From JAMORN01 sp027063545 [NCBI: bacterium] (GTDB lineage: Bacteria; JAMORN01): DNA of 6,888 bases. Position 1 is the first letter of the stretch. The number at the start of each line of letters is the position of its first letter. Position numbers and translations under genes: made by a program. The stretch spans positions 1-6,888 of the forward strand of contig JAMORN010000142.1 in NCBI GenBank assembly GCA_027063545.1, written 5' to 3'. Shown here piece after piece: positions 1-6,888 of the stretch. The notes under the pieces were generated by a model. That model searched no databases and had not been told where the DNA came from. It saw nothing but the letters and a program-made list of their open reading frames with translations.

Positions 1-504
1 ATATATATCTAAAGAACCTAGAAGATATAGAATTAAAGATTTAGATGAGGTATTTGAAAGAAATATATTGAGAATTGAGATAATTGATGAAGAAAAAAAA
101 CTAAAGAATACTCCTATTATTAAAAGCAGAATAGAGTTTTGTGATTTTTTATATATATTTATTAAAAAAACTAAAAGAGTAAGGGAAAATAAAATAGAAA
201 AAAGAAAAGTCATATTGGGAAGATTAAATAAAATAGCAAATGAAGCGCCTAATGCTCCCATACTTGTTATTCCGAGGGTATGTCCTGTGATTATAGGATT
301 TTTAAAGAGTCTTTGATATATATACCCAGAGAGTGCAAGAATAATAGAAGATGAGATTATTGTAATAATTTTAGGGATTCGTATGAAAAGTAGAATATTT
401 GCTATAATTTCTTTATTGTAGTTTAAAATAAAACCTTTAGAAAATAGGATATTTAAAAGAATACTTATTATGGATAAAATTAATGCTATAATAACTTTTT
501 TCAT
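1..504 (-). CDS. FecCD/BtuC-family ABC transporter permease, N-terminal part (gene runs off the left edge)
   Basis: This is the inner-membrane channel subunit of the uptake system encoded upstream. The frame is open for 168 codons from an ATG at 504 and has no stop before the window edge. Family members are usually about 320-350 residues, so roughly half is missing. The diagnostic FecCD stretch is present: RIPKI at residues 42-46, then ALSGYIYQRLFKNP at 57-70 and GHTLGITSMGALGA at 74-87. LLGSL at 161-165 fits the family's mid-protein loop. Hydrophobic segments are visible at about 3-22, 47-64, 78-94, 100-118 and 125-150. The start lies one base after the TAA of the ATPase gene (TAATATG), with no clear Shine-Dalgarno site, so translation probably depends on reinitiation by ribosomes leaving the ATPase gene. 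The family is certain; the substrate (corrinoid, heme or siderophore) cannot be read from this part. Confidence 0.9.
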   Translation of the reverse strand, partial: MKKVIIALILSIISILLNILFSKGFILNYNKEIIANILLFIRIPKIITIISSSIILALSGYIYQRLFKNPIITGHTLGITSMGALGASFAILFNLPNMTFLFSILFSLTLLVFLINIYKKSQNSILLLIIGVFFSFFSSSIISILNIFLSNTSSKSLILYLLGSLDIY

Positions 505-505
505 A

Positions 506-1240
506 TTAACTATAAAAGATAAACTTTTTATTTAATATTTTATAATCTAACCCTTTGTATTTTTCTTTAAAATATTCTGTGTTTATAAATTCCTCTATTG
601 AGTTGGCACTTTTTATTTGATTTTTTTCTATATAAAGAATACAATCTGCCATATTTATATCATTAATATCATGCGATACTAATACTATAAGATAGTCTTT
701 TTTTAATAAATTTAATTTTTTTTTCACAAAAGAAGAGGTATTATAATCAAGATTGTTAAAAACTTCATCAAGTAATAGAATTTTAGGGTTTTGATAAAAT
801 AATGAGAATATATTAAGTTTTTGAAGTTCTCCACCACTTAATTGTAGTAGATTTTTATTAATAATGTTGCCAATCTTAAACTTTTCATATATTTCACTTA
901 GAAACTTATTTTCTTTTATGTAGTGAATAGAAAAATTTTTATTTAAACTTAAAAAGTCCAAAACATTAATATCATAAACAGTATTATTTTGAAAGAGTAT
1001 TCCAACATATTTATAATATTCTTCAATAGAATACTTGAAAATATTGTTCTTAAAAAGTTTTATCTCTCCTTGAAATTTTTTATTGAGCCTTGCAATAGTT
1101 TTTAATAGAGATGTTTTCCCTGCTCCATTTTCGCCTATTAGTACATAAAGACCTTTTGAAAATGATAGATTTATATTTTTTAATATGGTATTATCTTTGT
1201 TGTAATAAATAGATACATTATTTAGAACTAACCAATTCAT
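506..1240 (-). CDS. ABC transporter ATP-binding protein (BtuD/FecE type)
   Basis: This is the cytoplasmic ATPase that powers the permease encoded next to it; two copies would be expected per transporter. All nucleotide-binding motifs are intact in the 244 residues: Walker A GENGAGKT at 36-43, Q-loop glutamine Q84, signature LSGGE at 134-138, Walker B ILLLDE at 154-159 with catalytic E159, D-loop NNLD at 162-165 and switch histidine H190. The length is normal for the family (about 240-260). The ATG at 1240 lies inside the end of the binding-protein gene, giving a 23-base overlap. Only a weak AAAGAAAA stretch precedes it, so translational coupling is likely. The order binding protein, ATPase, permease, downstream of an outer-membrane receptor, points to import of a TonB-dependent ligand. 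The protein is very rich in Lys, Asn and Ile, as expected from the base composition. Confidence 0.93.
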   Translation of the reverse strand: MNWLVLNNVSIYYNKDNTILKNINLSFSKGLYVLIGENGAGKTSLLKTIARLNKKFQGEIKLFKNNIFKYSIEEYYKYVGILFQNNTVYDINVLDFLSLNKNFSIHYIKENKFLSEIYEKFKIGNIINKNLLQLSGGELQKLNIFSLFYQNPKILLLDEVFNNLDYNTSSFVKKKLNLLKKDYLIVLVSHDINDINMADCILYIEKNQIKSANSIEEFINTEYFKEKYKGLDYKILNKKFIFYS

Positions 1241-2078
1241 TTTTCTTTAATTTTACATCTATCTCTTCAATTAGTTTTTTAACAGAAATAGGCCCTGGTA
1301 TTGAAGCATATTGAGTTTTAATAGAGATAAGATTAACATTTTTCTTTAATTTAAATAAAGGTTTAACGTTTTTTAAAGAATCACCAATAGAAAAATCAAA
1401 TATTATTTCAGGATTTAGTTTTATTATATCTTCCAAAGAAAGTTTGTAATAACTTAAAGAACTATCACATACATTTTCAATATTAAATAAAGTTAAAATA
1501 TCATTATAATAGGTTCTTTTACCAGCAACATAAAAAGATATATTATCTTTATTTAAAGAGGAGAGATATACCACCACTAATCCTTTTTTTCTTTTTGTAT
1601 TTTTGTATTTATTTTTAATAGTACTTAAAAATTTTTTATACTCTATAGTATTATTTGTATCATTAATATTTAAAAGTTTTGAAACAATATTTATACTTCT
1701 TATAATATTATCTATACTATTTTGCTCTATTTTTAACTTTTTTATACCAGTTATTTTATTTACTCTACTTTCTTGTGCGGGAGTATATAATATTATATCA
1801 GGTTTTAAACTAATAATCTTTTCAATAGAGAAATCAACAATTCCACCAACAATTTCAACATTTGATAATTGCTTAAAATTTTTAGAGAATCTAGTTATAC
1901 CAACAAGATTTTCAGGTTTGTTTAGGTAGATAAAAATTTCGGTAATACTAGGCGCAAGAGAAACAACCCTTAGATTATCTTTTTTTTCTATCGAAGAGGA
2001 AGAGCAACTATTTATAAATATTAAAATAAAAATGAAAAAAACTACTATATTAGTAATCTTCAAGTATTTCTGTATCAT
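1218..2078 (-). CDS. BtuF-like periplasmic substrate-binding lipoprotein
   Basis: This protein captures ligand in the periplasm and docks on the permease. A signal peptide with a hydrophobic core at about 11-22 ends in the lipobox INSC, with the lipidated cysteine at C25. Ser-rich and Lys-rich linker sequence follows. The mature part opens with RVVSLAPSITEIF (37-49), then VGITRFS and FSIEKIISLKPDIIL (83-97), which is the pattern of the BtuF/FhuD helical-backbone (type III) binding proteins. By eye, E86 in the first lobe and E216 in LSLEDIIKLNP match the two glutamates of E. coli BtuF (E72 and E202, precursor numbering) that contact BtuC arginines. The 286-residue length is normal. The ATG at 2078 overlaps the upstream lipoprotein gene by 29 bases and has no clear Shine-Dalgarno site; a TTG at 2063 would also leave a good signal peptide. 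Corrinoid is the favoured ligand, but a siderophore or heme binder of the same fold is possible. Confidence 0.87.
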   Translation of the reverse strand: MIQKYLKITNIVVFFIFILIFINSCSSSSIEKKDNLRVVSLAPSITEIFIYLNKPENLVGITRFSKNFKQLSNVEIVGGIVDFSIEKIISLKPDIILYTPAQESRVNKITGIKKLKIEQNSIDNIIRSINIVSKLLNINDTNNTIEYKKFLSTIKNKYKNTKRKKGLVVVYLSSLNKDNISFYVAGKRTYYNDILTLFNIENVCDSSLSYYKLSLEDIIKLNPEIIFDFSIGDSLKNVKPLFKLKKNVNLISIKTQYASIPGPISVKKLIEEIDVKLKKNELVSSK

Positions 2079-3105
2079 ATATTTTGTATGGGATTTGGAA
2101 TGTATAAACTACCTTTTTATAATTTGGATCATAAAATATTATTGAATAGTTTTGAGCTAGATTTTTTTGATATACAATATAATCATTAGTTAAGAAAAAT
2201 GGATAAACAATAGAAGAATCGTCTAATATTGTACTGATAATATTATTTGAAAGGAGATTTATATTATCTCCATCAAGGTATAAAATAGAATCAGAGAGAA
2301 TATCACCAATAAAAACTTTTGCATTTAAAGTGTTCTTTGAATAAATTGTTTGATATTCTACTTTTATACTATCATTAAGAATTATCTTTCCAATCTTATA
2401 TGTTGTATCAGTAGGAGAATTATAAATTATTATAGGATATTTAAATAGTAAAGGAGAAGAAGTAATAAGAGAGGTAGAATCTACTGTTTGAATTATACTA
2501 TCATTTATTACCTTAAACGCGTGAATATACCAAGTATTATTTGTATCATTTGATATAGATATAATTGTAGAATCATTTATTTGATTTATTTTTTGAATAT
2601 TAAAATTACTATTTATATAAAGTGCTTTAACAACAGAATCTAAATTTGTATTTAATATTCCAATAATATTTTTGTATGCAATGTATATAATAGAATCATT
2701 CTTTATAGAAAAGTCTGAAATTAATTTGTCATATATTGTTATATCCTTTTCTAGATATAGATCATCAAAAAACTCTTCAGCAGTAAATATATGAAATATT
2801 GATAAATTATTTATAGAATCATTTTCTAAAACAACAAGTCTTTTTCCCCTTTGCTTCATTGTTTTATAGTTTTTGTATTGAAATTGATATATGGTAAAGT
2901 TTAAAGAATCTTTATTGGCAGAGGACAGATATTTTATTTTAAAAATAAAAAAACTATCTGTTACACCAAACTTAGATTTTATTGTTTTATATGGTATAAT
3001 AGGCTGATCTTCTTCATCAGAACAAGAAGTGAAAGTAAATATAAAGATAAAACTTACAATTAGGATTTTTATGATATTCTTTCTAATATTTATAAATAAC
3101 TTCAA
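2050..3105 (-). CDS. Lipoprotein with recurring Asp-Ser motifs, possible beta-propeller (BtuG-like position)
   Basis: I do not recognise a named family. The 351-residue product has a signal peptide with a hydrophobic core at about 12-25 and lipobox FTSC, with C28 as the lipidated residue. Acidic sequence SDEEDQ follows directly, which resembles lipoprotein surface-export signals known in Bacteroidota. The mature protein alternates short beta-type hydrophobic stretches with polar turns. A motif of the form NDSI or a close variant recurs at about residues 95, 136, 177, 201, 244, 271 and 295, and other Asp-Ser pairs lie at 50, 66, 156 and 209. This suggests a repeated-hairpin fold such as a beta-propeller. 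There are no catalytic motifs and few cysteines. The gene sits between the TonB receptor (23-base overlap) and the binding protein (29-base overlap), so a role in ligand capture at the receptor, like BtuG in Bacteroides B12 loci, is inferred. The start is TTG, chosen because a strong GAAGGAG site precedes it. Confidence 0.75.
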   Translation of the reverse strand: MKLFINIRKNIIKILIVSFIFIFTFTSCSDEEDQPIIPYKTIKSKFGVTDSFFIFKIKYLSSANKDSLNFTIYQFQYKNYKTMKQRGKRLVVLENDSINNLSIFHIFTAEEFFDDLYLEKDITIYDKLISDFSIKNDSIIYIAYKNIIGILNTNLDSVVKALYINSNFNIQKINQINDSTIISISNDTNNTWYIHAFKVINDSIIQTVDSTSLITSSPLLFKYPIIIYNSPTDTTYKIGKIILNDSIKVEYQTIYSKNTLNAKVFIGDILSDSILYLDGDNINLLSNNIISTILDDSSIVYPFFLTNDYIVYQKNLAQNYSIIFYDPNYKKVVYTFQIPYKIYDTEILEDY

Positions 3106-5137
3106 AACTATAACTCCTTCCAGGTTCTGGGTATTTAGGGTTTAAAGTTACTCTATTATTTAAAATATTATCAAACCTTATATTATAAGTAATATAATTT
3201 TTTTGATAATTTAATACAATGTTTAACTTTAAATTAGAAGGCAAAAACCCATAATTCCCATATACGAGATATTGATAATCTTTGGGATGGTCATATATTA
3301 TATTACTTTTAAAGGTATAACACATAGAACTATAGATTAAATCAGAATAAATATTGATACTTTTATTTATTTTCAATTCTGTATGATTTTTTATTCTATA
3401 TTTGCTGGTGTATGGTAATATTTTATTAAAGTATATACCTTCTGTTTTATTTCTGTTATCAGAAATTGTTAAATAAATTTCGTTTTTTAATCTTTGGGTT
3501 CTGTAAAGGAAAAATAAAGTTAGAGATTTTATCTCGGCTTTTTCTATATTTTCAAATTTTATTAAATTATAGTTAGGGTAATATACACTTTTTATTATAT
3601 TTTCAGCTTTTAAGTGAAAAATAGACATTCCTAGAATAATATTTGAGAAGATTCTTTTTATACTAATTCCATATTTAAATAAAAGTTTTTCGTTTTTTAA
3701 ATAAGGATTAGGTATGATAAAATAGTTATCTCCAAATAGTTCTATTAAAGATGGTATTCTATAACCATTTAAAATAAAAAAAGCCATTAAATATTTTTTG
3801 GTATTTAGAATATTAAAAGTTAAAGAATAATCTGTTGTTATATTTTTAGAAGTATTGATAGAATCATATATAAATAATCTATTTACAAATAAAGCATTAT
3901 TTTTGTAGTATGTCAAAGAGCCTTTAGCTACAATCTTTTTGTATTTTATGGAATTACTAATAATAAATCGATTTCTATAAAAACTTGTTAATGTTTGATT
4001 TAAAATACTATCAAAATTGTCGTAGTTTTCTTTTATGAGATTTACTGAAAGATTATTTTCTAAAAAATTTTGATAATATTTGATTTTTATGTTAAAAGTT
4101 TTCCTTTTATTATTGCTTTCTAAATTTGTTTGGTTAAAGAAATATAAGTAGGATGTGCCATATATGTCTTTTAACCTATTATAAATAATATGGTCATAAA
4201 ATGTTATATGAAACATTAAATTATCACTTAATATGGTTTTAAAATAAAGAGAATAGATATTATAAAACTTTTTTTCTGATATTTGATACATTTCAGGGAA
4301 AAACACATTATGAAATGTAGAAAATTTATTGCCTGTGATGATAAAGAAATACAATTTTATTATTTTATTTTTTAAAATAAAATAAGGGGAATCTACATAA
4401 GTAAAAATTGTAGTTTGTTTTATTGGAGCTATATTGTATTCAATATAGTAATCATCATTGAGATTGTATAATGTGCCATTATAATTTAAGATAGAAAATC
4501 TGTTTTTGATATCTGCCCAATACGTTGAGAAAAATACATTAAATTGATTTTGATTAAAATAGATATTAGAGAAGATTTTTTTATTATTTAAAGAGTTGTA
4601 TGATAATAGAGCTATATTATCTTTTATTGGGTTCATTTTAAACTTTAGGGATACACCTAAAGGATTATTTATTTCATCATCTCCATTATACTTAAGATAG
4701 ACTTGATTTATAAAAAAAGAGAATATACTATAATCAAAAGATGAAGTGGTTTCTAAAGTTATAGGAATAGAATTTAAATAATAGTTGTTATGATATCCTC
4801 TTAATCCTTCAAACTTTATTTCTGAATAATTACCATCAGCATTTTTGGTTATATATATATTGGGATTTTGTTCTATAATTTGAGATACAGAAATTAGAGA
4901 ACTAATATTTTTTTGTTTTTTTATTGAAAAATTTTTAATTTTTTTATATATAACGTAAATAGTATCATTATAATAAGTTGTATCTGAAGGATAAGAAAAA
5001 ATGGGATTATTAAGAGCCATAAAAAAGATAAAAAGATATAGACAAATTAAGGAAATAAAAGTTTTATCTAAAATGGTTCCCCATCTATTTTGTGGTCGTT
5101 CTAAGTTTTTATTCTTAATTAGTTTCGATTTAAACAT
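3083..5137 (-). CDS. TonB-dependent outer-membrane receptor (BtuB-like candidate)
   Basis: This is a 684-residue ligand-gated beta-barrel that would bring the ligand across the outer membrane using TonB energy. A hydrophobic signal core spans about 27-42, with cleavage likely near 48-50, followed by a TonB-box-like stretch DTIYVI at 58-63 that resembles the DTLVVTA box of E. coli BtuB. The plug domain follows at about 80-170, with SVSQIIEQNPNIYI, EIKFEGLRGYHNNYYLNSIPI and INQVYLKYNGDDEINNPLG showing the usual order of plug motifs. The remaining roughly 500 residues are aromatic-rich alternating strands, ending in a typical barrel terminus (PEPGRSYSFEVIYKY with a final aromatic residue). No N-terminal carboxypeptidase-like domain is present. 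The ATG at 5137 has a strong GGAGGAGAG site at 5146-5154. The region before the signal core is unusually long, about 25 polar residues. This is the first gene of the operon. The receptor class is certain; the ligand is inferred. Confidence 0.88.
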   Translation of the reverse strand: MFKSKLIKNKNLERPQNRWGTILDKTFISLICLYLFIFFMALNNPIFSYPSDTTYYNDTIYVIYKKIKNFSIKKQKNISSLISVSQIIEQNPNIYITKNADGNYSEIKFEGLRGYHNNYYLNSIPITLETTSSFDYSIFSFFINQVYLKYNGDDEINNPLGVSLKFKMNPIKDNIALLSYNSLNNKKIFSNIYFNQNQFNVFFSTYWADIKNRFSILNYNGTLYNLNDDYYIEYNIAPIKQTTIFTYVDSPYFILKNKIIKLYFFIITGNKFSTFHNVFFPEMYQISEKKFYNIYSLYFKTILSDNLMFHITFYDHIIYNRLKDIYGTSYLYFFNQTNLESNNKRKTFNIKIKYYQNFLENNLSVNLIKENYDNFDSILNQTLTSFYRNRFIISNSIKYKKIVAKGSLTYYKNNALFVNRLFIYDSINTSKNITTDYSLTFNILNTKKYLMAFFILNGYRIPSLIELFGDNYFIIPNPYLKNEKLLFKYGISIKRIFSNIILGMSIFHLKAENIIKSVYYPNYNLIKFENIEKAEIKSLTLFFLYRTQRLKNEIYLTISDNRNKTEGIYFNKILPYTSKYRIKNHTELKINKSINIYSDLIYSSMCYTFKSNIIYDHPKDYQYLVYGNYGFLPSNLKLNIVLNYQKNYITYNIRFDNILNNRVTLNPKYPEPGRSYSFEVIYKY
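3114..3120 (-). promoter_or_regulatory. Ribosome-binding site that fixes a TTG start
   Basis: On the minus strand GAAGGAG lies 8 bases before the TTG at 3105, which is ideal spacing. No ATG or GTG start in the same frame would leave a full signal peptide. The site lies inside the last codons of the receptor gene. Confidence 0.75.
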
Positions 5138-5268
5138 CTGAAATACTCTCCTCCAGTCAATATCATTTCAAAAAATAAAAAAATAAATCTAAAATAAGTA
5201 AAGTTCTTTTAGTATTAAAAAATTTTTTCTTTTTTCTAGTAAAATTTGAATAAATAAGGAGGAGAGGA
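5138..5268. promoter_or_regulatory. Divergent intergenic promoter region between uptake operon and speD
   Basis: These 131 bases must hold the promoters of both transcription units. They contain the receptor ribosome-binding site (GGAGGAGAG, minus strand, 5146-5154), the speD site (AAGGAGGAGAGG, plus strand, 5256-5267) and a perfect A6T6 palindrome at 5217-5228 that may bend DNA or act as an UP-type element. A weak minus-strand candidate promoter is TTTACT (5238-5243), 18 bases, then TTTAAT (5214-5219). A plus-strand minus-10-like TAAAAT lies at 5240-5245 but has no minus-35 partner. Neither promoter call is firm. I see no riboswitch, no B12 box (GCCACTG) and no stem-loop terminator. Confidence 0.5.
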
Positions 5269-6051
5269 ATGATTGCTTTAGGAAGACAAGTAATTATAGA
5301 AATGTATGATGCAGATCCAAAGGCTTTAGCTGATGCAACAATTGTTGAGGATATATTCTTAGAAGCAGCAAAAGAAGCAAATGCTACAATTTTATGGAGT
5401 TATTTTCATCCTTTTGAACCACAAGGGGTAAGTGGGGTTATTGTTATAGCAGAGAGTCATTTTACTGTTCATACATGGCCAGAGTATAGATATGCTGCTA
5501 TAGATATATTTTATTGTTCTGAAACAGTAAATGTGGAAAAGGCTGTTGAGGTGTTTAAAAGAAGATTTAATACTAAAGAGATAGTAATAGTAGGAGATTT
5601 AAATAGAGGGGTTATAGATACAGATGGAAACATGAGAATTCCTGCAAATATGGAAATTAAACAACCAGAGTATTATACATTCTCTTGGGAGAAAAAATTT
5701 AAAGAAAGCAATGCAAGAGCAATTTCCGCTTCTATTGATTTACATGATGTAGATTCTAGTTCAATGGAAGATATGGCAAAAATAGAACATTTCTTAAAAG
5801 AAATTGAAGATAAGTTTAATTTTATTCCTTCAGGGGAGATGGAAGTTTCTTACTCAAAGGAAGATAATGAGTATACAATAATTCTGCCAATGAAAAATTC
5901 TTCATTAACTTTACATGTTGATATAGACGAGAATAGAGTTGCTATAGATGCTTATAGCAATAGTTTTTTTGAGCCAAGGGAATTAGCAGAGTTTGCTTTA
6001 AAATATTTTGGAGGTAAACACTATACATTAGAAGTTGCTTTAAGAAAATAG
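5269..6051 (+). CDS. speD: S-adenosylmethionine decarboxylase proenzyme with extra C-terminal degenerate domain
   Basis: This cytoplasmic pyruvoyl enzyme decarboxylates AdoMet to supply the aminopropyl group for spermidine. Residues 1 to about 120 form a complete Thermotoga-type SpeD. Self-cleavage is expected between E62 and S63, with S63 becoming the pyruvoyl group; H68 (in HFTVHTWPE) and C83 (in DIFYC) are the other active-site residues. These match the S63, H68 and C83 of the T. maritima enzyme in numbering. That family is usually about 120-140 residues, but this product has 260. The extra part (about 150-260) does not resemble the long E. coli-type SpeD. It aligns almost without gaps to the first half, so it looks like a second, decayed AdoMetDC domain. 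AAGGAGG with 6-base spacing sets the ATG at 5269. speE follows 39 bases downstream, which supports an operon. Function of the first domain is near certain; the role of the second is unknown. Confidence 0.95.
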   Translation: MIALGRQVIIEMYDADPKALADATIVEDIFLEAAKEANATILWSYFHPFEPQGVSGVIVIAESHFTVHTWPEYRYAAIDIFYCSETVNVEKAVEVFKRRFNTKEIVIVGDLNRGVIDTDGNMRIPANMEIKQPEYYTFSWEKKFKESNARAISASIDLHDVDSSSMEDMAKIEHFLKEIEDKFNFIPSGEMEVSYSKEDNEYTIILPMKNSSLTLHVDIDENRVAIDAYSNSFFEPRELAEFALKYFGGKHYTLEVALRK

Positions 6052-6090: not shown

Positions 6091-6888
6091 ATGGAGATAA
6101 AAATAGGTGATAGTTTATGGTTTATTGAAGTAAGTGATTTATGGCCTGGTAGGGCTTTAGCTGTTGAAATTGAAGAGGTTTTATATAAGGGAAAATCTAA
6201 ATATCAGGATATAGCTATTTATCAAACAAAGCATCTTGGAAAGATGTTGGTTTTAGATTATGCTATTCAACTTACCCAGTCAGATGAGATGGCATATCAT
6301 GAGATGTTTGTTCATGTACCATTAAATGGGGTTAATTTTTCAGTTGAGAGAGTTTTAGTAGTTGGTGGAGGAGATGGAGGGCTTCTTAGGGAAATATCAA
6401 GGTATAAAGAGATAAAGCAGATTGATATTGTTGAGATAGATGAAGAGGTTATTAGGGTTTCAAAAGAGTATTTAAAATTTACAAGTATTGGTTTTGATGA
6501 TAGTAGGGTTAATGTTTATATAGAAGATGGATTTAAGTTTTTAGATGAAAGGGAAGGTTATTATGATATAATTTTAGTTGATTCTTCAGATCCTGAAGGT
6601 CCTGCAGAGAGTTTATTTAGAAGTGATTTTTATAAGAAACTATATAGAGCATTAAAAGATAGAGGAGTTGTTGTTACACAGGGTGAAAGTATATGGCTTC
6701 ATTTTGATAAGATAATAAAGCCTTTAATTGATGATATAAAGAATATTTTTGATAGAGTTGATTATTATAAAACTCAGATTCCTACATATCCTTCTGGTAT
6801 GATAGGTTATATTGTAGGAATTAAAGGGGATTTTTCAATAAGAGAGCCTAAAGGAGAATTGGAATTTCAAAATGATTTGAGGTATTAT
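6091..6888 (+). CDS. speE: Spermidine synthase (aminopropyltransferase), 3' end beyond the window
   Basis: This enzyme transfers the aminopropyl group from decarboxylated AdoMet to putrescine (possibly another diamine or agmatine), using the product of the adjacent speD. The frame stays open for 266 codons to the window edge. Motifs include LWPGRA at 17-22, SKYQD at 36-40, DEMAYHEM at 65-72, the nucleotide-binding GGGDGG at 92-97, EID at 115-117, EDGF at 145-148, catalytic DSSDPEGPAESLF at 164-176, QGESIWLHFD at 197-206 and IPTYPSG at 230-236. D95, D164, D167, Y69 and Y233 match human spermidine synthase D104, D173, D176, Y79 and Y241. The window ends at LRYY, which aligns with human LKYY, so only about 25 residues should be missing. 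AAGGAG at 6080-6085, 5 bases before the ATG, sets the start. Resemblance to the animal enzyme is unusually strong, including the N-terminal LWPG segment. Confidence 0.95.
   Translation, partial: MEIKIGDSLWFIEVSDLWPGRALAVEIEEVLYKGKSKYQDIAIYQTKHLGKMLVLDYAIQLTQSDEMAYHEMFVHVPLNGVNFSVERVLVVGGGDGGLLREISRYKEIKQIDIVEIDEEVIRVSKEYLKFTSIGFDDSRVNVYIEDGFKFLDEREGYYDIILVDSSDPEGPAESLFRSDFYKKLYRALKDRGVVVTQGESIWLHFDKIIKPLIDDIKNIFDRVDYYKTQIPTYPSGMIGYIVGIKGDFSIREPKGELEFQNDLRYY

What the first reader, a model, noticed from the sequence alone, without database searches (positions are those of the whole stretch)
5269..6051. SpeD appears to be a tandem duplication of the AdoMetDC domain within one protein
The second half of the 260-residue SpeD can be aligned to the first by eye. 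DAD (14-16) matches DVD (160-162), and VEDIFLE (26-32) matches IEHFLKE (172-178). FTVH (65-68) matches LTLH (213-216), and AID (77-79) matches AID (225-227), with exactly 11 residues from His to Asp in both copies. The pattern around F100 and K103 matches F247 and K250. Offsets stay at 146-148 throughout. Thermotoga-type SpeD is normally a single roughly 130-residue domain. Eukaryotic AdoMetDC is thought to have arisen by duplication and fusion of such a unit, so this bacterial gene may show a parallel or intermediate form.
Basis: partly seen in the sequence, partly recalled or inferred. Interest (0 to 1): 0.75.

Follow-up and report, generated by a model that had tools for sequence, protein, structure and literature searches.

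The report
Fused spermidine enzyme with decayed half
This bacterial gene makes one protein from two related enzyme halves, a working-looking spermidine-pathway enzyme and a worn-out sister enzyme; such fusions were described in 2023, so this is a new example of a known kind rather than a new invention.

Summary
In detail: the 260-residue SpeD at 5269-6051 holds two AdoMetDC-fold domains. The C-half alone passes the Pfam AdoMet_dc cut-off (39.5 against 25 bits). Folded alone, it best matches Thermotoga SpeD (Z 15.2).

"Tandem duplication of the AdoMetDC domain" is only half right. The C-half is not a copy of its own N-half. It scores 44.9-68.9 bits with models of SpeDC (the pyruvoyl ornithine-decarboxylase paralogue) and 3.9 with a SpeD model; the N-half does the reverse. 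It lacks the four residues I took as ODC-diagnostic and the catalytic Cys, but keeps the Ser and His equivalents.

Li et al. 2023 (PMC10407285) already described such SpeD-SpeDC fusions upstream of speE, some with a degraded C-half, and proposed them as a model for eukaryotic AdoMetDC. I compared 60 relatives found in a sample of 387 genomes of one phylum; 44 have a degraded C-half.

One point may be new. Of 45 degraded C-halves, 40 lost the His equivalent, while 61 of 61 N-halves keep theirs; the eukaryotic enzyme uses a His in its C-half. The window's is the only one of the 45 with both Ser and His. New member of a known kind.

The parts
5257..5264 (+). probable ribosome-binding site (AGGAGGAG) of the fusion gene
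   Evidence: read from the sequence
5269..6051 (+). speD fusion gene, 260 aa
   Evidence: PF02675 two stretches; TIGR03330 146.7 bits against cut-off 75.65
5269..5622 (+). N-half (residues 1-118): class 1b SpeD domain
   Evidence: SpeD HMM 157.7 bits, SpeDC HMM 10.6; T. maritima SpeD Z 19.7 over 117 residues
5431..5433 (+). Ser55 of the N-half
   Evidence: 61 of 61 fusions keep it
5452..5457 (+). Glu62-Ser63, predicted self-cleavage and pyruvoyl site of the N-half
   Evidence: 61 of 61 fusions; T. maritima S63 named in PMC10407285
5470..5472 (+). His68 of the N-half
   Evidence: 61 of 61 fusions
5515..5517 (+). Cys83 of the N-half
   Evidence: 61 of 61 fusions
5623..5712 (+). linker (residues 119-148), including the SW..KF start of the C-half typical of fusions
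   Evidence: low model confidence in residues 121-140; 54 of 61 fusion C-halves begin xSW
5713..6048 (+). C-half (residues 149-260): degraded SpeDC-type domain
   Evidence: SpeDC HMMs 68.9 and 44.9 bits, SpeD HMM 3.9 (half taken from residue 138); fold match
5875..5877 (+). Thr203, equivalent of Ser55
5896..5901 (+). Asn210-Ser211, equivalent of the cleavage pair (Glu-Ser in SpeD, Thr-Ser in intact SpeDC-type C-halves)
5914..5916 (+). His216, equivalent of His68
5959..5961 (+). Asn231 in place of Cys83
6091..6888 (+). speE, spermidine synthase, runs off the window; starts 39 bases after the fusion stop codon
   Evidence: TIGR00417 278.7 bits, cut-off 249.55; PF01564

Best explanation
The gene encodes a SpeD-SpeDC fusion of the Victivallis vadensis type, next to speE. 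The N-half is the working S-adenosylmethionine decarboxylase. It cuts itself between Glu62 and Ser63, turns Ser63 into a pyruvoyl group and makes decarboxylated AdoMet for SpeE. The C-half descends from the pyruvoyl-dependent ornithine decarboxylase paralogue SpeDC, lost the catalytic Cys and the ornithine-specific residues, and now most likely serves as a non-catalytic structural partner. Shown here: the two domains, the family of each half, the residues kept and lost, the speE neighbour. Inferred: activity and cleavage of the N-half, inactivity of the C-half, its structural role.
For: C-half alone over the Pfam AdoMet_dc cut-off. C-half SpeDC 68.9 bits, or 44.9 with a model built only from 8 free-standing SpeDC-like proteins, against SpeD 3.9; N-half SpeD 157.7, SpeDC 10.6. 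Quick tree of 109 rows: C-half with fusion C-halves (95*) and SpeDC-like singles (96*, 99*). Linker of 34 residues against 30-35 in the 23 other fusions listed; 54 of 61 fusion C-halves begin xSW, the window's included, while 0 of 9 free-standing SpeDC-like proteins carry the SW..[RK].F-type motif. N-half keeps Ser55, Glu62, Ser63, His68, Cys83, as do 61 of 61 fusions. C-half keeps 0 of 4 ODC-diagnostic residues and has Asn for Cys83. speE follows directly. Published relative: the V. vadensis fusion with degraded C-half restores spermidine in an E. [quoted passage not shown]
Against: The C-half keeps Ser211 and His216, so self-cleavage there is not excluded by residues alone. The window N-half does not settle in one place: outside a clade of the 25 other sampled fusion N-halves, nearest fusion L086, nearest L078 and L100, on long branches in the last two. 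Decayed C-halves also have long branches, so their 95* grouping may partly be attraction. The SpeDC label rests on similarity and on diagnostic residues placed by me; the paper's Figure 8 and supplements were not seen. The arrangement of the halves is not predicted with confidence (pTM 0.65).
Confidence: 0.82

Rival explanations
1. The C-half is still a working pyruvoyl enzyme: Ser211 is converted to pyruvoyl with the help of His216, and the domain decarboxylates ornithine poorly or another substrate, without the usual Cys.
For: Of 45 degraded C-halves only the window's keeps both the Ser and the His equivalents. Three family searches of the own genome found no other putrescine source: the one PF02784 hit is lysA, no arginase-family hit, and the one OKR_DC hit is under the cut-off and is an aminotransferase.
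Against: Cys83 equivalent is Asn; 0 of 4 ODC-diagnostic residues kept; Cys83 is named among the residues essential for processing and involved in catalysis (PMC10407285). The genome is 82.7% complete, so genes may be unassembled, other routes were not searched, and putrescine may be imported.
Confidence: 0.1
2. True tandem duplication: the C-half is a copy of this organism's own SpeD domain that diverged quickly.
For: Offsets and motifs line up. In the 29-residue motif Ser55..Cys83 the C-half is neutral between SpeD and SpeDC (+1.2 bits, second highest of 45), with SpeD-like LTLH and AID.
Against: Over the whole domain SpeDC models win by 41-65 bits; the tree puts it on the SpeDC side; near-neutral motifs also occur in other decayed C-halves (L088 +7.6, L103 +0.1).
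Confidence: 0.03
3. The fusion arose independently in this lineage from separate speD and speDC genes, rather than sharing one origin with the fusions of L027's phylum.
For: In one search the window N-half lies outside a 98* clade of the 25 other sampled fusion N-halves; only 8% of 200 bootstrap trees hold all sampled fusion N-halves together; this is the only held genome of its phylum; separate SpeD and SpeDC-like genes near each other exist in another phylum.
Against: One clade of all 20 sampled fusion N-halves is not rejected (p-AU 0.45); linker length and the xSW..F start are shared with other fusions, and the motif was found in 0 of 9 free-standing SpeDC-like proteins.
Confidence: 0.2
4. 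The C-half completes the N-half active site within one chain, as in the eukaryotic class 2 enzyme: Thr203 and His216 act on Ser63, in a face-to-face N:C pair.
For: In eukaryotes the N half holds the pyruvoyl Ser and the C half the His (PMC1282579 section 19); the window C-half keeps His and has Thr at those places; the C-half matches the human C half (residues 171-288) at Z 9.7, though an apparently unrelated protein (2fpn, YwmB) reaches 9.2 in the same list.
Against: The N-half keeps its own Ser55 and His68 in 61 of 61 fusions, while 40 of 45 degraded C-halves lost the His, so those relatives must work without it. TM to human and potato enzymes in the top 50 is only 0.27-0.35, several of these rows covering one half only; the single-chain model does not settle the arrangement (pTM 0.65).
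Confidence: 0.25

Closest known systems
Victivallis vadensis SpeD-degraded SpeDC fusion, WP_116885763, 271 aa (Li et al. 2023, PMC10407285)
   Same: One ORF of two SpeD-family domains, SpeD-type N-half, degraded C-half, size within 11 residues
   Different: V. vadensis belongs to Lentisphaerota, the window to a phylum with no other held genome. By the paper its C-half lacks at least two critical residues; its sequence was not identified here. The window C-half keeps Ser and His and lacks Cys.
Desulfotignum phosphitoxidans and Ca. Omnitrophica OLB16 SpeD-SpeDC fusions (same paper)
   Same: Same order of domains, directly upstream of speE
   Different: Both halves are active there (AdoMetDC and ODC) and two pyruvoyl groups are expected; the window C-half lacks the ODC residues and Cys
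Kiritimatiellota MAG fusion L027 (JAADHT010000068.1)
   Same: 36-37% identity over residues 3-260, similar linker
   Different: C-half intact: Ser, His, Cys and the ODC-type motif; no speE in the 3,099 bases held downstream
Thermotoga maritima SpeD (1tlu, 1vr7)
   Same: N-half: Z 19.7, 44% identity; C-half alone: Z 15.2, 14% identity
   Different: A single-domain protein; the window chain has two
Eukaryotic class 2 AdoMetDC (human 1i7b, 1jl0; potato 1mhm)
   Same: Two SpeD-fold halves in one chain, second half without a pyruvoyl site (PMC10407285, PMC1282579)
   Different: The N-half here keeps its own His68 and Ser55; the eukaryotic His acts from the C half. No class 2 chain among the 10 sequence matches at E up to 10

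Membership tests
Class 1b SpeD (N-half) | PF02675 and TIGR03330 over their cut-offs | tested here: met
   N-half alone: PF02675 125.8 bits against 25. TIGR03330 was run on the full protein: 146.7 bits against 75.65, best stretch 4-107
Class 1b SpeD (N-half) | Ser63, His68, Cys83 (T. maritima numbering) present | tested here: met
   61 of 61 fusions, window included
Class 1b SpeD (N-half) | Pro that separates AdoMetDC from the arginine-decarboxylating SpeDA | tested here: inconclusive
   HTWPE Pro71 is present in the sequence, but Figure 8 was not seen, so whether this is the Pro meant is not confirmed (text)
Class 1b SpeD (N-half) | AdoMet decarboxylation | not testable with these tools
   needs an assay
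SpeD-SpeDC fusion (Li et al. 2023) | one ORF with two SpeD-family domains upstream of speE | tested here: met
SpeD-SpeDC fusion (Li et al. 2023) | second domain belongs to the SpeDC family | tested here: met
   the SpeDC reference set is by similarity, not assayed
SpeD-SpeDC fusion (Li et al. 2023) | no other polyamine biosynthetic genes in the genome | tested here: inconclusive
   no arginase-family hit, PF02784 hit is lysA, OKR_DC hit under cut-off, but the genome is 82.7% complete and other routes were not searched
Working SpeDC ornithine decarboxylase (C-half) | four diagnostic residues Gln, Thr, Phe, Tyr | tested here: not met
   Leu, Asn, Val, Ala; positions placed by me from the paper's text
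Working SpeDC ornithine decarboxylase (C-half) | Ser63, His68 and Cys83 equivalents | tested here: not met
   Ser and His kept, Cys is Asn231
Eukaryotic class 2 AdoMetDC | each half has the SpeD fold | tested here: met
   N-half Z 19.7 and C-half alone Z 15.2 to T. maritima SpeD
Eukaryotic class 2 AdoMetDC | halves paired face to face in one chain | tested here: inconclusive
   TM 0.27-0.35 to human and potato chains in the top 50, pTM 0.65
Eukaryotic class 2 AdoMetDC | active-site residues split between the halves, His from the C half | tested here: not met
   N-half carries its own Ser55, His68 and Cys83, so the residues are not split; eukaryotic pattern from PMC1282579 section 19

The most novel reading that the evidence does not exclude
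Bacterial SpeD-SpeDC fusions mostly decayed in the opposite way from the eukaryotic enzyme: the working half kept every active-site residue checked and the dead half lost the His that the eukaryotic second half supplies, so most of them cannot be wired like a class 2 enzyme and their N-halves must be self-contained or pair across chains. The window protein is an exception: its C-half keeps Ser and His (with Thr for Ser55) while Cys and the ornithine-specific residues are gone. It could be the first known bacterial chain in which the second half still serves the first half's active site, a real functional intermediate.
Probability: 0.15. Interest if true: 0.55.

Novelty: new member of a known kind. 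Interest (0 to 1): 0.3.

Why it matters
It extends the published SpeD-SpeDC fusions to a phylum with no other held genome, and it corrects the reading as a simple domain duplication. The comparison of 61 fusions gives a concrete test for the published idea that such fusions led to the eukaryotic AdoMetDC: in 40 of 45 degraded ones the second half no longer has the His that the eukaryotic second half supplies, so either they assemble differently or they are not good models.

Tried and rejected
Direct pairwise comparison of the halves was too weak to decide. phmmer of the C-half against PDB sequences gave nothing meaningful (best E 0.25). The idea that the C-half motif was re-tooled towards SpeD was tested and not supported: it scores +1.2 bits, neutral, and L088, whose C-half lacks Ser, His and Cys, scores higher. 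The idea that degraded C-halves keep the residues that eukaryotic C halves supply failed for the relatives: His kept in 5 of 45, Ser55 as Ser in 4 of 45. An acidic residue four after His216 (Asp220) is not special: 23 of 45 degraded C-halves, the window's included, have Asp or Glu there. Among 59 other genomes of the same domain no further full-length match to P0001 appeared. A search for more fusions in the phyla of G208 (6 genomes) and G244 (12 genomes) found none, only separate SpeD and SpeDC-like genes. Viral contigs: pattern scans with P0001, P0002 and A2 gave no relative; a scan with a SpeD alignment gave 593 relatives, of which the tool kept 80, and in those 80 no matching ORF of 230 aa or more and none with two domain hits was found. 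Phages: 0 of 138 records with a match cover 80% of the query; plasmids: 2 of 25 do, in two pieces under two annotated genes. Repeated loss of the C-half is suggested by the N-half tree (4 changes, bootstrap range 4-5) but a single degraded clade is not rejected (p-AU 0.258), and the full-length tree needs only 2 changes. Two papers on T. maritima AdoMetDC structures that I looked up by DOI were not held; nothing was seen of them.

Rows dropped before counts: of the matches, L085 (fusion split over two contigs) was left out, and L029 and L059 as duplicates, giving 61 fusions (window, L027 and 59 others). 57 of 61 distinct other ORFs were kept (four over 250 aa dropped). One search used 26 of 61 fusions; one search used 20 of 61 N-halves and 35 of 57 singles. 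The SpeD HMM used 21 of 57 singles; the SpeDC models used 8 of 9 SpeDC-like singles, with or without 16 intact fusion C-halves, and left out four more distant ones (L124, L126-L128). Residue counts depend on the alignment; L116 and L075 have gaps in the motif.

Full report
What is there. The window holds a 260-residue ORF at 5269-6051 on the + strand with a ribosome-binding site, and speE starts 39 bases after its stop codon. Pfam finds two AdoMet_dc stretches. The C-terminal half alone passes the Pfam cut-off (39.5 against 25 bits, E 7.5e-10) but not the stricter TIGR03330 cut-off (20.1 against 75.65). A direct comparison of the halves is weak (44 of 2000 shuffles reach it), so the claim rests on profiles and folds.

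Fold. AlphaFold2 on an alignment of 28 rows, of which only the window and L027 are two-domain proteins that cover the C-half, gives mean pLDDT 91.1 with the same order of elements in both halves and a loose linker around residues 121-140. The N-half matches T. maritima SpeD at Z 19.7. The C-half, predicted alone from the single sequence (pLDDT 78), matches the same protein at Z 15.2 over 112 residues with 14% identity; human spermine synthase (10.9) and human AdoMetDC (10.4) follow, and the first row not named after either enzyme is 2fpn (YwmB) at 8.8. In the full-length model the C-half matches the C half of human AdoMetDC at Z 9.7, but 2fpn reaches 9.2 there, so that match alone would not decide. 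The arrangement of the two halves is not settled: pTM is 0.65 and TM to the human and potato enzymes in the top 50 is 0.27-0.35, several rows covering one half only.

Origin of the C-half. I built profile models from relatives found in whole genomes. The window C-half scores 3.9 bits with the SpeD model, 68.9 with a SpeDC model that includes intact fusion C-halves, and 44.9 with a SpeDC model from 8 free-standing proteins only; the N-half scores 157.7 with SpeD and 10.6 with SpeDC. 45 of 45 degraded C-halves score higher with both SpeDC models than with SpeD. In a quick tree of 109 rows, with few columns, the C-half sits with other fusion C-halves (95*) and with SpeDC-like singles (96*, 99*); decayed rows have long branches, so the finer grouping is not to be trusted. 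So the protein is a fusion of two paralogues, not a duplication of its own domain. The SpeDC reference set is defined by similarity and by residues that I placed from the text of Li et al. 2023; their Figure 8 and supplements were not seen. 15 of 16 intact fusion C-halves carry all four diagnostic residues and one carries three.

Relatives. The genome-contig scan gave one fusion relative, L027 from a Kiritimatiellota MAG, 36% identical over residues 3-260, and one single-domain SpeD. In a sample of 387 genomes of that genome's phylum 76 have a match; 60 of the 387, L027's own included, gave fusions used here, and one more (L085) was split over two contigs and dropped. In 386 genomes of the same domain the window's was the only full-length match among those listed; the list was cut at weaker matches. 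The window genome is the only one held of its phylum. speE was found downstream on the same strand in 27 of 61 fusions: 11 of 16 with intact C-half and 16 of 45 with degraded C-half; in L065, L090 and L114 only 253, 448 and 625 downstream bases were held.

What was kept and lost. 61 of 61 N-halves keep Ser55, Glu62, Ser63, His68 and Cys83. Of 61 C-halves 16 keep Ser, His and Cys and 45 do not. Among the 45, 33 keep none of the three, 4 only Ser, 3 His and Cys, 3 only Cys, 1 only His (L116), and 1 Ser and His: the window. The window also has Thr for Ser55 and 0 of 4 diagnostic residues. In the eukaryotic enzyme the pyruvoyl Ser lies in the N half (strand 4) and the His in the C half (strand 12), each half contributes active-site residues, and prokaryotic chains carry the union of both sets (PMC1282579 section 19, read whole). 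Ser55 of T. maritima corresponds to human Ser229, and the T. maritima S55A mutant still activates (PMC3975893, passages). Most degraded bacterial fusions therefore decayed in the opposite way: the working half is complete and the dead half lost the His. I take this as a sign that their N-halves pair across chains or are self-contained. This is inference; no structure of a fusion was available.

Placement. The window N-half has no stable position: among single-domain SpeDs and outside a 98* clade of the 25 other sampled fusion N-halves; nearest the fusion L086, where one clade of all 20 sampled fusion N-halves is not rejected (p-AU 0.45) but appears in only 8% of 200 bootstrap trees; and on long branches elsewhere. 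The linker length and the xSW start (54 of 61 fusion C-halves; motif in 0 of 9 free SpeDC-like proteins) favour one fusion origin.

Pathway. Three family searches of the own genome (82.7% complete) found no arginase-family gene, one PF02784 hit that is lysA and one OKR_DC hit under its cut-off that is an aminotransferase. Where putrescine comes from is open: import, a missing contig, another route not searched, or residual activity of the C-half.

Known or new. Li et al. 2023 (PMC10407285: abstract, Results parts 1 and 3, the first part of the Discussion and passages of the fusion section seen) report single-ORF fusions of two SpeD homologues upstream of speE, show AdoMetDC and ODC activity in two of them, describe degraded C-halves in V. 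vadensis, many other Lentisphaerota and Desulfobacter latus, and propose them as a model for the eukaryotic enzyme. [quoted passage not shown] the window protein does not supply one. The parts of that paper that I read do not discuss the His pattern by residue; its Figure S5 and supplements, which may show it, were not seen. My literature searches cover openly licensed papers only, and apart from the three papers named here their hits were seen as listings. Verdict: new member of a known kind, interest 0.3.

Noticed in passing
window 1-5137, - strand: A divergent cluster: FecCD-type permease (PF01032), ABC ATPase (PF00005), periplasmic binding protein whose best NCBIfam scores are to BtuF and IsdE models, under their cut-offs (PF01497 over its cut-off), then a 351-aa and a 684-aa ORF with no Pfam or NCBIfam match at E 0.001; to me the 684-aa protein looks like an outer-membrane receptor. 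Probably a metal, heme or cobalamin uptake operon.
   Followed up: partly
G000 (the window's genome): It is the only genome held of its phylum, so the whole window comes from a sparsely sampled lineage.
   Followed up: no
L117, L118, L119: Three fusions with very diverged C-halves (SpeDC model 19-24 bits) on a long branch, Ser kept, His replaced by Arg; they keep speE next door.
   Followed up: no
L079-L083, L086-L091, L093-L098, L101-L104, L106-L111, L114, L115: 29 of 45 fusions with a degraded C-half have no speE in the stretch held downstream, against 5 of 16 intact ones; the operon may have been broken up in that group. Some held stretches are short.
   Followed up: no
L122 and L123 (G208, G339): Separate SpeD and SpeDC-like genes on one strand about 850 bases apart, a possible picture of the arrangement before fusion.
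   Followed up: no
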